A DNA stretch of 64,000 bases from Curvibacter sp. AEP1-3 (GTDB taxonomy: Bacteria; Pseudomonadota; Gammaproteobacteria; Burkholderiales; Burkholderiaceae_C), in the NCBI RefSeq assembly GCF_002163715.1, contig NZ_CP015698.1, positions 1,612,001 through 1,676,000 on the forward strand, given 5' to 3'. Both the position numbers and the translations under genes were made by a program. Below, one piece after another: positions 48,450 to 57,174 of this stretch. The notes beneath the pieces are model-generated. The model was not told the DNA's origin. It did not search any database and saw only the letters and a program-made list of their open reading frames with translations. Position 1 is the stretch's first letter. Each line of letters starts with the position of its first letter.

Positions 48450-48578
48450 ACATGGTGAATATATAGTGCTAACGTCAGAAAACCGGCAAACGCACTGTTC
48501 ACAATGTTTTCAAGAGTTATCTGAAAAAAACAATGTACTTTTTTACAAACCGAATAAAATACTTTCACTCACTATAGA

Positions 48579-49901
48579 TTGAGTAATTTAATGAAGCTGT
48601 ATCAGTCCGACTACCAATGCCTGATGTTCCATGCCGACGGTCGTGTTAACTACCCCTTCAGTCGCTTCTTGACTGCGGAGTTCGATAACCCACACACCAG
48701 AGAACTGGTATCCCAAGCACTTCGGATTCTTCAAAAATTTCTAACTGCTCACTGCATCGAGTTAGCGGTGCGTGCGTTGGAAGGGCGATGCCTCAGCGGC
48801 CGAGAATGCGAAAATCTTGCAAGCTTGTGCTATCTACCTCTCACGGTGATAGATGTCATGTCCACCAGAAAAGTGGTGTCGATAACCTCAGCCATCGCCG
48901 GTCCCGCGCCAGCAAAATCAGCCAAATCGGTCTCGCGCAACACTGTACAGAAGCGCCTGCTGTATATCGCGGCATTTCTTCGCTTTTACCTCACTGAGTT
49001 CCTAGATCCATACCTGCGATCTTCAAGCCTACGTGCCGAATTGCGTGCGAGGTATGACGAGACCAGACGAAAAATCGGGAATAAAGTGTCCGGTACAAAA
49101 CAAGTACACCATCTCAAAATTAAATCCCTGCCCGGAGATCGATTCGTTCAACTGATCCGCTTGGCCGTACTGGAACCTCAGCGCCTGTTTATGACGAATA
49201 AGGCGAAACCTTGTGCGACCCTTCTTCGGGACCGGGCAATATTTCTCTTGGCTTGCGAGGGACTTAGGCCTGGAACCATAGCAAATATCGCAATGGAAGA
49301 TTTACGACTAGACAGTGGGTACCTAGTGATAAAAGACAACCGGAGGCGTCGTATGGGACGACTAAATACAGGTACCCCCAAACTCAAACTTGGGGCAAGT
49401 ACTCGCACCAATAGTGCGTCAGAGACGATGATTAAGCTCTGCCCTTGGACTTCCAAGGCAATTCAATCCTACTTACAGGATGAGCGAGAACCGATCCTCT
49501 CAAAGCAACTAGCTAACCTCAGCCGAGGCTTTCTGTTTCTAGCCGGCACCGGAAAGCCAATCGGGCATCGCTCATCTGTCACGAAATTGTTCAATCGCGC
49601 AGGCTCGCGGCTGCGCGAGCTGAGCCTGCTTGATGTTGGGAGTGACCCCTACTTCCACGACAAAAAGCAGTACGACTTCTACGGATATGTCCTGCGACAC
49701 AGTGCTGCAACGTTCTATCTTAGATCGCGAGGCAACAACGACGCGACGATATCTGAGATGAGGACGCGGTTCGGTTGGACTGAAAAAAGTGCGATGCCCC
49801 AACTCTATGCCAAACGGGCCGAGAGTGAGATTTCAGACGGAATTCTTATGAAGATGTACCACGACATCAGCGAAGAAATGCTCGCCGCTGGAAAGGCCTG
49901 A
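48579..49901 (+). CDS. tyrosine recombinase (first of three)
   Basis: A 440-aa integrase-type protein. Catalytic box residues: Arg230 in LRPGTIAN, Arg373-His374 in YVLRHSAAT (Tyr370 where HxxR enzymes have His), Trp400 in the FGW box (where many have His) and nucleophile Tyr410 in QLYAKR. The R-HxxR-H/W-Y set is thus complete except for the His-to-Tyr change. The N-terminal 190 residues are the core-binding part. It is first in the operon at the element end and its TGA is followed at once by the ATG of the next recombinase. Position and size recall IntA of SE elements and GmtY of gamma-mobile-trio islands (from memory). Confidence 0.88.
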   Translation: MSNLMKLYQSDYQCLMFHADGRVNYPFSRFLTAEFDNPHTRELVSQALRILQKFLTAHCIELAVRALEGRCLSGRECENLASLCYLPLTVIDVMSTRKVVSITSAIAGPAPAKSAKSVSRNTVQKRLLYIAAFLRFYLTEFLDPYLRSSSLRAELRARYDETRRKIGNKVSGTKQVHHLKIKSLPGDRFVQLIRLAVLEPQRLFMTNKAKPCATLLRDRAIFLLACEGLRPGTIANIAMEDLRLDSGYLVIKDNRRRRMGRLNTGTPKLKLGASTRTNSASETMIKLCPWTSKAIQSYLQDEREPILSKQLANLSRGFLFLAGTGKPIGHRSSVTKLFNRAGSRLRELSLLDVGSDPYFHDKKQYDFYGYVLRHSAATFYLRSRGNNDATISEMRTRFGWTEKSAMPQLYAKRAESEISDGILMKMYHDISEEMLAAGKA

Positions 49902-54550: not shown

Positions 54551-54982
54551 ATGAGTGCGAAAACCGGCAGTAACGGAATCGCTATTGGTCAGGAGAACGT
54601 GCAGAAATACTTAAACTGGCACAGCCAAGTGGAGGACTTCAATCCATATGTTCGGCACGGAACCCTGAACGTTGCGCGAATTGCTCGAGAAGCCGGCCTA
54701 AAGCGGGATGTTTTCTATACCAATCCAAAGATCCGTAACGTGCTCTGGCCCAGCTTGGTCCGTCGGCTTGTGCAAGAAGGAGTACTTCAGGAGAAGGGAA
54801 AAAACCCGGCGGAGGTAATCTTCAGCAATTCCAAACGTTCAGGCATGGATGAAGCACTTATCAAGCAAATGCAGGGAGAAATTGAAGCCTTGAACACAAA
54901 GGTTCTTGAGCTACGGAAGCGGCTTGAACGGTATCAGGCATTGGACATGGTCTTACACACCACAGGAAGACTGCCTTGGTAA
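54551..54982 (+). CDS. second small helical protein, HTH/coiled coil
   Basis: A 143-aa protein of similar design to the preceding one: an N-terminal region with a helix-turn-helix-like block (LNVARIAREAGLKRDVFY near 39-56) and a C-terminal coiled coil (MQGEIEALNTKVLELRKRLERY) ending TTGRLPW. It starts 92 bp after the first small gene and overlaps the helicase gene by 7 bp, so it belongs with the helicase in translation. The two small proteins are not obvious copies of each other, but share size and layout. Its function is unknown; a loader or specificity factor is possible. Confidence 0.72.
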   Translation: MSAKTGSNGIAIGQENVQKYLNWHSQVEDFNPYVRHGTLNVARIAREAGLKRDVFYTNPKIRNVLWPSLVRRLVQEGVLQEKGKNPAEVIFSNSKRSGMDEALIKQMQGEIEALNTKVLELRKRLERYQALDMVLHTTGRLPW

Positions 54983-57174
54983 ACTTTCGTGGAGATGAAA
55001 GCCATCTGATACGAGTTCTTTCAGTAATCGCACAAAACCGTAACGGTGCGATCCTAAGAGGACAATGCCTTACCGACTCCGGTGAAATAGTAGTCAGCCG
55101 CGAAGAAATTGTGGCTCGCATCCAAGGTCGCGGAGTGGCCGTGCCAGTTCTACCCGGTCAGTGGTGGGCAATGAAAGGCAAGATAAGCACGAAGAGGTTC
55201 ATTAATGCGAGTGGCTACCTGACAGAGCAAGACCAATTGGAGGTGTTGCCAGGCGATGCAATACTGACATTGCCCTTAGGCGCGCACATCGTTGACTACC
55301 TCAATTGCAACCCCAGATTTAAAGGTGTTGGTCCTGCGACTTCGGACAAGTTGTGGAAGACCTTCGGGGACCACTTGGTTGAGAAATTGGATGCAGGAGA
55401 TCGCGCGTCTCTTGAGAGAGTCGTAAGTCAAAGCAAAGCACTCGCTTTGGTCCGAGGATGGCAAGCGGAGCGGCTTGATAAGGTCATTCAATGGTTGGGC
55501 GCCAATGGATTGGAACCCGCGGTTAGCAGACGTATCGTGGCCCACTTTGGTGCCGAAGCCGAGGACAAGATTCATGAGAACCCTTATCGAATCCTGAGCT
55601 TTGCAGCAGGCTGGCGCGAGGTCGATGTCTTTGCAACCCAGAAGCTGGGAGTAGCCCGAACAGATGATCGCAGGCTCTCAGCTGCGGTGGAGGAATGCGT
55701 CTATAGACGATTTAATCGGGGCGACACTTGTGTTCCGTTACCCGATTTGATACGTGGGATTCGAAGGCTACTCACGGCGGAAAACACACAACAGCATGTT
55801 ATTGACGCCGCCTTAGGGTTCTGTGAGCGCGCGGGACGCCTTTTCTTCGACCGGCAAGAAAATGCATACTCACCCGGTGCGTCGGTCTTGGAAGACCGCG
55901 TAGTGAAGTGCATAGTGTCTCGACAAGGTCATCTGAGCCCAGCGTTCAATGTGGATGAACTCATAAATGGGTATGAAACTCGGGAAGGCAATGGATGCCC
56001 ACTTAACTCTGAACAAAGGGCTGCAGTTCACTTGGTGGCAGACCATCACTTTGCAGTAATCACCGGTGGTGCTGGGTGTGGAAAAACCACGGTTTTGAAG
56101 GCTGCTTGCTTGGTCTTGGAGGCGCAGGGCTACAAAATAATCCAAGTCGCAGCTGCAGGGAAAGCAACCAGGGGAATGCAAGAAAGCACAGGTCGTGCCG
56201 TTCAAACGATTGCATCGCTCCTCCAAGATGTCACTGAGGGAATGGTGATTGACTCCTCAGGTCCGGCAATAGGACATGCAATCCTGGTGTTTGAGGCAGA
56301 CAAGGTGGACCTCATCACTTTCTCAGCACTGGTTAGGGAATTGCCACACACTGTAAAGCTCGTACTCATAGGGGACCCTCACCAGTTACCGCCTGTTGGA
56401 CCCGGACTGATCCTACACAGTTTGACCAACGGTATCGTTCCCCACGTTGAGCTGAAAGTTGCCAAAGGCTACGAAAGCGAAATAAGCAATTTCGCAAACA
56501 GCATTCGGAACGGTGTCTTCCCCGAACTCCATGCGAATGGTCCCGTCCGATTTACTGAAATATGTGACTCCGAAATGGCTGAGTTTGCGTTCAAGGAGTA
56601 TTTGTCTAGTCCAATGGACACAGTTGTTTTGTGCTCTACCAGAGCCTTGGCGAAGAACATTAATCAACGCGTCCAAGATGCACTAACCTCGAGCAGGAGT
56701 GAAGTAATGTTTCGGAGCAAGGAGACGGATTTCTGGGCAGCCACACGTTTGAGAGAGGGTGACCAAGTTATCTGTACCAGGAATAACTGGCACCTAGGTC
56801 TGCAACATGGATCCATGGGACGAATCGTATCCGTCGACCACCATGATGGTGATCAAATTGGCAAGATAGAGTGGGATGATGGTATTGTCCGCAGTTTCAA
56901 TGAAACGCTATTGGATGACCTAAAACCTGCCTATGCACTTACTGTGCATGAATGTCAGGGCGCTCAATGGAAACGGGTGCTTGTCTGCCTGCCAAAAAGA
57001 AACAAAGTCGCAGATCAAACCCTTGTTTATACGGCAGTAACCCGAGCACAGTCAGAGGTACTAGTGCTTGGAAATCGTTTAGCGATACAAGAACAAGTTG
57101 GACGGAATTTGTTCATAAATCAGCGTTTCGTTGGCCTGTCAAAGCGCTTGGAAGTAACAAAGCTGTCAGCTTAA
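54976..57174 (+). CDS. RecD2-like superfamily 1 helicase with altered Walker B
   Basis: A 732-aa protein. The N terminus has an OB-like domain (residues about 10-95) and helix-hairpin-helix units (PRFKGVGPATSDKL near 115), as in RecD2. Walker A is GGAGCGKTT (364-372), motif III LIGDPHQLPPVG, motif V/VI region TVHECQGAQW (656-665) and YTAVTRAQSE. At the Walker B/II position, where RecD-type helicases read DEASM, this one has Phe439-Glu440-Ala-Asp-Lys443; the metal-binding Asp is replaced by Phe while the Glu is kept. HKSQG is also changed to HECQG. It may be a weak or regulated ATPase. It is coupled to the upstream small gene. Confidence 0.85.
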   Translation: MVNFRGDESHLIRVLSVIAQNRNGAILRGQCLTDSGEIVVSREEIVARIQGRGVAVPVLPGQWWAMKGKISTKRFINASGYLTEQDQLEVLPGDAILTLPLGAHIVDYLNCNPRFKGVGPATSDKLWKTFGDHLVEKLDAGDRASLERVVSQSKALALVRGWQAERLDKVIQWLGANGLEPAVSRRIVAHFGAEAEDKIHENPYRILSFAAGWREVDVFATQKLGVARTDDRRLSAAVEECVYRRFNRGDTCVPLPDLIRGIRRLLTAENTQQHVIDAALGFCERAGRLFFDRQENAYSPGASVLEDRVVKCIVSRQGHLSPAFNVDELINGYETREGNGCPLNSEQRAAVHLVADHHFAVITGGAGCGKTTVLKAACLVLEAQGYKIIQVAAAGKATRGMQESTGRAVQTIASLLQDVTEGMVIDSSGPAIGHAILVFEADKVDLITFSALVRELPHTVKLVLIGDPHQLPPVGPGLILHSLTNGIVPHVELKVAKGYESEISNFANSIRNGVFPELHANGPVRFTEICDSEMAEFAFKEYLSSPMDTVVLCSTRALAKNINQRVQDALTSSRSEVMFRSKETDFWAATRLREGDQVICTRNNWHLGLQHGSMGRIVSVDHHDGDQIGKIEWDDGIVRSFNETLLDDLKPAYALTVHECQGAQWKRVLVCLPKRNKVADQTLVYTAVTRAQSEVLVLGNRLAIQEQVGRNLFINQRFVGLSKRLEVTKLSA

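What the first reader, a model, noticed from the sequence alone, without database searches (positions are those of the whole stretch)
48450..57174. Six-gene recombination operon: three tyrosine recombinases, two small helical proteins and a RecD2-like helicase
Seen: six co-directional genes with 0 to 92 bp gaps and several overlaps, starting 130 bp inside the element end. Each recombinase has a readable catalytic set (R230/R373/H374/W400/Y410; R~217/R360/H361/H383/Y392; R232/H507/R510/W532/Y544). Known from memory: Tn554 (TnpABC), SE elements such as Tn6283 (intA-cds2-intB-srap) and gamma-mobile-trio islands place recombinases and a small accessory protein at one end. Here the same order is extended by a second small protein and a helicase that overlaps it. 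Inference: the helicase may be a dedicated part of the mobility machinery, for example single-strand processing or copying during strand-biased transfer, and would define an enlarged class.
Basis: partly seen in the sequence, partly recalled or inferred. Interest (0 to 1): 0.78.

Follow-up and report, generated by a model that had tools for sequence, protein, structure and literature searches.

The report
GInt mobility operon with helicase module
A very large mobile DNA island has split a host gene and starts with a known kind of four-gene recombination operon followed by an extra small protein and a DNA helicase, a two-gene add-on that also turns up beside the recombination genes of other, distantly related mobile islands.

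Summary
In detail: six co-directional genes at 48579-57174. The island interrupts katG and spans 216,042 bp from end to end, nearly three times the largest in the 2017 GInt paper (at least 76 kb), mostly outside the window. Genes 5 and 6 are a VPA1267-like protein and a RecD2-like helicase. The pair is optional: 8 of 25 informative gin loci have it, the window included. Yet it keeps company with trios: in 399 same-family genomes the 11 best helicase matches (window included) all have gene 5 upstream and a recombinase trio beside it, seven gin and four GMT-type (two pass all GMT cut-offs, one is cut by a contig end, one is GMT-like by size and order only). The pair can precede or follow the trio. 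I read it as a dedicated mobility accessory, most likely unwinding DNA for copy-out of the island; that role is inferred. This window's helicase has lost the Walker B Asp and Arg498 and may be inactive. The ends look like SE/Tn554 (6-bp footprint, inverted motifs); the direct repeats of published GInts were not found.

The parts
46464..48449 (-). C-terminal part of katG (catalase-peroxidase), interrupted by the island; the N-terminal part lies at chromosome C1:1876498-1876683, outside the window
   Evidence: TIGR00198 matches model positions 67-714 here and 5-66 there, both on the - strand
48444..48449 (.). six katG bases next to the left island end (TGAATC), expected position of the recombination core
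   Evidence: relatives with uninterrupted katG run through here
48450..48466 (.). left terminal motif, imperfect inverted repeat of the right end (right motif at C1:1876475-1876491, outside the window)
   Evidence: 12 of 20 positions match, reached by 144 of 200000 random island 20-mers
48579..49901 (+). ORF1, GinA-type tyrosine recombinase
   Evidence: PF00589 25.2 bits, just below its cut-off of 27.1; catalytic residues; first gene of gin-type operons
49902..51509 (+). ORF2, GinB-type tyrosine recombinase
   Evidence: PF00589 31.3 bits, over its cut-off; NF041502 integrase_1 80.1 bits, below its cut-off of 350; first Arg not conserved
51506..54022 (+). ORF3, GinC-type protein with a full tyrosine recombinase residue set
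   Evidence: no Pfam family over cut-off and no NCBIfam match; invariant R232, K280, H507, R510, W532, Y544 in 29 rows; homologues in gin order
54015..54458 (+). ORF4, GinD-type small protein
   Evidence: homologues directly behind GinC-type genes
54551..54982 (+). ORF5, VPA1267-like small protein, partner of the helicase
   Evidence: NF040697 69.6 bits, below its cut-off of 90; DUF6262 32.4 bits, cut-off 29; gin-linked relatives L066 and L071 pass NF040697 with 180 and 174 bits
54976..57174 (+). ORF6, RecD2-like SF1B helicase; D439F in Walker B and R498G
   Evidence: TIGR01448 307 bits, below its cut-off of 500; best solved relative 3e1s, 225.6 bits; substitutions
57175..64000 (.). cargo of the island inside the window; the island goes on to C1:1876491

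Best explanation
The six genes are the mobility operon of a GInt-type island that inserted into katG. GinA, GinB, GinC and GinD carry out site-specific recombination of the island ends, as shown by others for a Pseudomonas GInt. Genes 5 and 6 are an optional, usually overlapping pair: a VPA1267-like protein, read here as a DNA-binding adaptor, and a RecD2-like helicase. The pair recurs beside several unrelated recombinase trios. Its most likely job is to open DNA at the recombined ends so that the island can be copied out as a circle while the donor copy stays in place. Shown here: operon, island borders, recurrent linkage, both gene orders. Inferred: DNA binding by gene 5, helicase loading at a recombination intermediate, copy-out. 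In this window the helicase is probably no longer active. I hold the linkage to mobility as likely (about 0.85) and the copy-out role as less sure (about 0.45).
For: Operon and island. GinC-anchored: pair in 8 of 25 informative loci, one ORF5 remnant. Helicase-anchored: of 399 genomes 42 match at 1e-20; the 11 best (476.8 bits and more, window included) all have ORF5 upstream and a trio, 7 gin and 4 GMT-type. G539 and G583 pass the NCBIfam cut-offs for GmtY, GmtZ and GmtX. The six next-lower loci have no ORF5. Annotated GMT records of Klebsiella, Vibrio, Providencia and E. coli have gmtY, a large integrase-type gene, gmtX, VPA1267 and helicase in a row. The pair precedes the trio in G539, G583 and, as far as its contig goes, G683. 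ORF5 and helicase overlap in 21 of 23 relatives, by 4 nt in 14. Listed metagenome clusters of GinC and helicase share 8 exact contig lengths against 0.4 expected. A Rhodovastum operon adds a RepB-type primase in front of ORF5 (one case). Copy-out models and missing empty sites: PMC10214605 (passages) and PMC5385486 (parts 1-3 of 6). The 6-bp footprint on the ginA-distal side fits the SE/Tn554 rule.
Against: A minimal GInt with ginABCD alone integrates and excises (PMC5385486), so the helicase is not needed for recombination. 16 of 25 informative gin loci have neither gene, and 6 of 8 GMT-anchored plasmid loci lack the pair. This copy's helicase has D439F and R498G. No call tests replication, DNA binding or circle formation. 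Pair-bearing helicases are not shown to be one clade: the tree needs three changes of the label. Plasmid helicase L144 has neither pair nor trio although its score (342.8) is close to that of pair-bearing L142 (380.2); L145, close kin of a GMT helicase, stands without ORF5 or trio in the stretch fetched. Some linked operons (G604, G870, G1090, L136, L142) are trio-like by gene size and order, with weak or no family matches for the large genes.
Confidence: 0.6

Rival explanations
1. The pair protects the island rather than copying it: the helicase counters host nucleases, restarts stalled forks or guards single-stranded DNA during entry, and sits with the recombinase genes because it is needed right after arrival.
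For: The pair is optional and the four gin genes suffice for recombination (PMC5385486). ORF6 matches RecD-type models of the defence library, some from candidate defence systems (typeIV_RecD 132.7, PDC-S68 126.5, RecD_like 118.6 bits). RecD-type helicases act in repair (general knowledge).
Against: It is tied to trio operons rather than to the cargo: 11 of 11 helicase-anchored loci. ORF5 has no match in the defence library.
Confidence: 0.25
2. The pair is cargo that happened to be captured near ginD and spread by recombination among islands.
For: Window and L036 share 72% in the helicase and 57% in ORF5 but only 30-39% in the four gin proteins, so the pair may move between operons. Many gin and GMT operons lack it.
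Against: The same pair sits beside gin, GMT and other trio-like operons, before or after the trio, and none of the 11 best helicase matches lacks a trio.
Confidence: 0.1
3. The 216 kb between the katG parts is not one original element but a small GInt swollen by later insertions.
For: 10 of the 16 rve-transposase matches over the family cut-off in this genome lie in this stretch, about 5% of the genome. A tyrosine recombinase gene with an in-frame stop lies about 1.1 kb from the right end.
Against: Both ends fit one insertion: complementary katG parts in one orientation, inverted terminal motifs, one gin operon, no second copy of the end motifs closer than three mismatches. Growth inside the borders remains possible.
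Confidence: 0.3

Closest known systems
[quoted passage not shown] Bardaji et al. 2017, PMC5385486 (parts 1-3 of 6 read)
   Same: Three recombinase-type genes and a small protein gene in a row at one end of an island, cargo behind, target gene interrupted
   Different: Two extra genes; 216 kb against at least 76 kb in that paper; katG as target; no 10-17 nt direct repeats found; GinC here keeps the Arg and Tyr that the papers say GinC lacks
GMT (gamma-mobile-trio) islands; Mahata et al. 2024, known here only from a reference list, not read
   Same: Recombinase trio; VPA1267 protein and helicase behind gmtX in L138, L139, L140, L146 and, cut by the stretch end, L148
   Different: The window's proteins fail the GMT models: ORF2 reaches GmtY at 11.4 bits, cut-off 340, no GmtZ or GmtX match; 6 of 8 GMT-anchored loci lack the pair
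[quoted passage not shown] PMC10214605 (passages seen)
   Same: 6-bp footprint on the side away from the first recombinase gene, imperfect inverted end motifs, several recombinases and a small accessory protein
   Different: Different gene order; the word helicase does not occur in that paper's main text; no SE or Tn554 protein was compared here
RecD2 helicase of Deinococcus radiodurans, 3e1s
   Same: Closest solved relative by sequence, 225.6 bits (organism recalled)
   Different: Element-borne copy next to a VPA1267-like gene; this copy lacks the Walker B Asp

Membership tests
GInt | ginABCD operon (called the defining feature by its authors) at the 5' end | tested here: met
   Order, sizes, residue sets and homology to other such operons. 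The published GinABCD sequences themselves were not compared.
GInt | Cargo region between operon and 3' end | tested here: met
   Island 216,042 bp, GC 0.538 against 0.625 in the katG side flank
GInt | Short AT-rich 3' end | tested here: met
   Last 300 bp GC 0.417 against 0.538 for the island
GInt | 10-17 nt imperfect direct repeats at the borders | tested here: not met
   2 of 18 positions in register; best 12-mer 7 of 12, reached by 1982 of 2000 shuffles. The authors name the operon, not the repeats, as defining, but their elements show them; so I call the operon GInt-type and the element a variant.
GInt | Circular form after excision | not testable with these tools
   needs junction PCR or reads
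GMT | GmtY, GmtZ and GmtX over NCBIfam cut-offs | tested here: not met
   ORF2 GmtY 11.4 bits only, no GmtZ or GmtX match
VPA1267 family (ORF5) | NF040697 score of 90 bits or more | tested here: not met
   69.6 bits; gin-linked L066 and L071 pass with 180 and 174, so ORF5 is a diverged relative
RecD2 (ORF6) | TIGR01448 score of 500 bits or more | tested here: not met
   307 bits; RecD2-like, not RecD2 proper
SE/Tn554 | 6-bp footprint rule at the ends | tested here: met
   the length of 6 rests on where the inverted motif starts, and the last of the six bases is also found in katG
SE/Tn554 | intA-tfp-intB-srap or tnpABC gene set | not tested
   gene order described differs; no sequence comparison was made

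The most novel reading that the evidence does not exclude
The VPA1267-type protein and the RecD2-like helicase are a common, element-encoded unwinding module, in one case with its own primase, that drives copy-out replication of tyrosine-recombinase trio islands across GInt, GMT and alphaproteobacterial forms. These islands would then be replicative transposons of very large size rather than cut-and-paste islands.
Probability: 0.3. Interest if true: 0.85.

Novelty: new variant of a known kind. Interest (0 to 1): 0.62.

Why it matters
How SE, GInt and GMT islands leave a copy behind is open; the SE paper invokes replication, and in the passages seen it names no element-encoded replication factor. 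A helicase module that recurs beside the recombinase genes of several trio types is a concrete candidate with a simple gene-removal test. It also suggests that GInt-type borders can enclose over 200 kb, here with CRISPR-Cas genes among the cargo.

Tried and rejected
Chance neighbours: disfavoured by the helicase-anchored count. Pair required for mobility: rejected, most gin and GMT loci examined lack it. Purely a defence gene: not excluded, but ORF5 has no match and ORF6 only RecD-type matches in PADLOC. GMT membership of the window's operon: rejected. One clade for all pair-bearing helicases: not shown; the tree needs three label changes. A left-end motif shared with other gin loci: not found in 16 loci. 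More primase-bearing operons: 347 plasmid records match the Rhodovastum primase, 25 were listed, and their surroundings were not fetched, so this stays one case. The VPA1267 model in 369 class genomes: 4 match, none over its cut-off; three weak ones (20-23 bits) were not looked at.

Literature: ten searches. In their listings, and in what I opened (PMC5385486 parts 1-3 of 6; passages of PMC10214605, PMC1464126, PMC12715929, PMC10734457), I saw no statement that links a helicase to these operons. Most listed papers were not opened, and the 2024 GMT paper is not in what the searches listed, so it may say so. NCBI already names VPA1267 proteins beside gmt genes, so that link is known at annotation level.

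Limits of the counts. Left out of the GinC count: L034, L038, L039 (contig ends), L064 (same locus as L035), H2 (not fetched). The GinC search was not complete: G028 has a gin operon but was not listed. In the tree L064 and proteins under 600 aa were left out. The helicase matches of 25 of the 42 genomes (128.5 bits or less) were not examined. Of 1476 plasmid records with a helicase match 40 were listed and 13 of the records were fetched, picked by hand; 11 have an ORF5-type gene and a trio or trio-like genes (L135 and L137 with broken genes), L144 and L145 do not. Of 146 plasmid records with a GMT integrase match 14 were listed at even steps and 8 fetched: L146 and L148 have the pair (L148's helicase cut by the stretch end), six do not, one of these (L153) a fragment. 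G683's recombinase fragment was not scanned with family models; it resembles that of G539 by eye.
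Full report
What is there. Six genes on the + strand at 48579-57174 overlap or nearly touch. The island begins at 48450, inside katG. A catalase-peroxidase model matches positions 67-714 in the window and 5-66 at C1:1876498-1876683, on the same strand. Between the end motifs lie 216,042 bp. 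In 5 of 11 relative loci where the stretch could be read (L022, L023, L024, L026, L028) katG runs through without the six bases GAGGAC seen at the right end, while the left end keeps six katG bases, TGAATC. The two ends carry imperfect inverted motifs, 12 of 20 matching, reached by 144 of 200000 random island 20-mers. This is the footprint pattern described for SEs and Tn554 (PMC10214605, passages). The 10-17 nt direct repeats of published GInts were looked for and not found.

What the genes are. [quoted passage not shown] I did not compare them with the published Gin sequences. Gene 3, the GinC type, keeps R232, K280, H507, R510, W532 and Y544 in all 29 rows of its alignment, and in 21 of 21 more diverse GinC rows with W or F at 532. 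One paper says that GinC lacks the first Arg, another that it lacks the catalytic Tyr. So GinC may be catalytic here; no structure was obtained. In gene 2 no first Arg is conserved. Gene 5 resembles the VPA1267 family below its cut-off and DUF6262 above its cut-off. Gene 6 is RecD2-like.

How often the pair follows. From GinC, 25 loci are informative: the window, 8 of 11 from genome contigs, 3 of 4 plasmid records, 13 distant ones. Eight have the pair (window, L035, L036, L045, L066, L068, L071, L072), one has an ORF5 remnant (L075), 16 have neither. From the helicase, 42 of 399 same-family genomes match at 1e-20; the 11 best, from 476.8 bits and the window included, all have ORF5 directly upstream and a trio beside the pair. 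Seven are gin operons. Four are of GMT type: G539 and G583 pass the cut-offs for all three GMT proteins; G683 is cut by a contig end; G604 is GMT-like by size and order only (GmtY 31.9 bits, cut-off 340; no GmtZ match). In G539, G583 and G683 the pair comes first. The six next-lower loci (160.5 to 230.5 bits) have no ORF5. From ORF5, 6 of 399 order genomes match: the window, G870 and G1090 have the pair with trio-like genes (those of G870 have no Pfam match, G1090 is cut by its contig start), while G827, G821 and G1047 are weak matches without helicase. On plasmids, 13 helicase loci were fetched of 1476 records with a match: 11 have an ORF5-type gene and a trio or trio-like genes, L144 and L145 do not. 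From the GMT integrase, 2 of 8 fetched loci have the pair.

What this means. The trio does not need the pair, but the pair keeps company with trios. The exceptions count: L144 is a related plasmid helicase with neither, and L145 is close kin of a GMT helicase without partner or trio in the stretch fetched. Pair and gin genes diverge differently: window and L036 share 30-39% in the gin proteins, 57% in ORF5 and 72% in the helicase, which fits exchange of the pair between operons, though a slower rate of the helicase would also raise its identity. Listed metagenome clusters of GinC and helicase share 8 exact contig lengths against a mean of 0.4 and a maximum of 3 under jitter (118 and 119 lengths, typed).

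Mechanism. SEs are thought to leave the donor in place by copying out a circle, and some GInt strains show no empty site. A helicase of the 5'-3' RecD2 kind (direction recalled) with a small partner is a natural candidate for opening the recombined end. One operon, in Rhodovastum, also has a RepB-type primase (PF16793, 2.5e-28). This is inference: nothing here tests replication.

State of this copy. The Walker B aspartate is Phe and R498 is Gly. Six residues differ where all other rows of the 25-row alignment agree, against 0-3 in 22 rows and 7 and 15 in two distant ones. Its branch is 0.32 against 0.053 for its sister. GinC shows no such excess (2 deviations, others 0-4). The window's helicase is therefore probably inactive or decaying, or the sequence is wrong there.

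Noticed in passing
46464-48449 and C1:1876498-1876683: katG is split by the island; one search lists no other full-length match to the same model in this genome. Other catalase families were not searched.
   Followed up: partly
54976-57174: Helicase residues 438-443 read VFEADK where relatives read IDEASM or nearly so; R498 is Gly.
   Followed up: yes
61768-62841: Type I-F Cas1 (cas1_YPEST, 491.8 bits) as island cargo; a long ORF follows to the window end.
   Followed up: no
58190-58555: Small H-NS-like protein (PF00816, 35.2 bits) in the cargo, possibly a silencer of the island.
   Followed up: no
58862-59941: DUF6765 protein (321 bits) in the cargo.
   Followed up: no
L136 6686-7534: RepB-type primase gene between a GinD-sized gene and the ORF5-type gene of a Rhodovastum plasmid operon.
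   Followed up: partly
C1:1874919-1875368 (outside the window): Tyrosine recombinase gene with an in-frame stop near the right island end; a match over the same model positions without stop at C1:3184653.
   Followed up: no
L121: A genome of the same genus carries a GMT operon in the order ORF5, helicase, gmtY, gmtZ, gmtX.
   Followed up: yes
L142: Alteromonas plasmid operon with the pair is followed by an integrase gene and a reverse transcriptase gene.
   Followed up: no
L075: ORF5 remnant of 109 aa behind a GinD-type gene, no helicase.
   Followed up: partly
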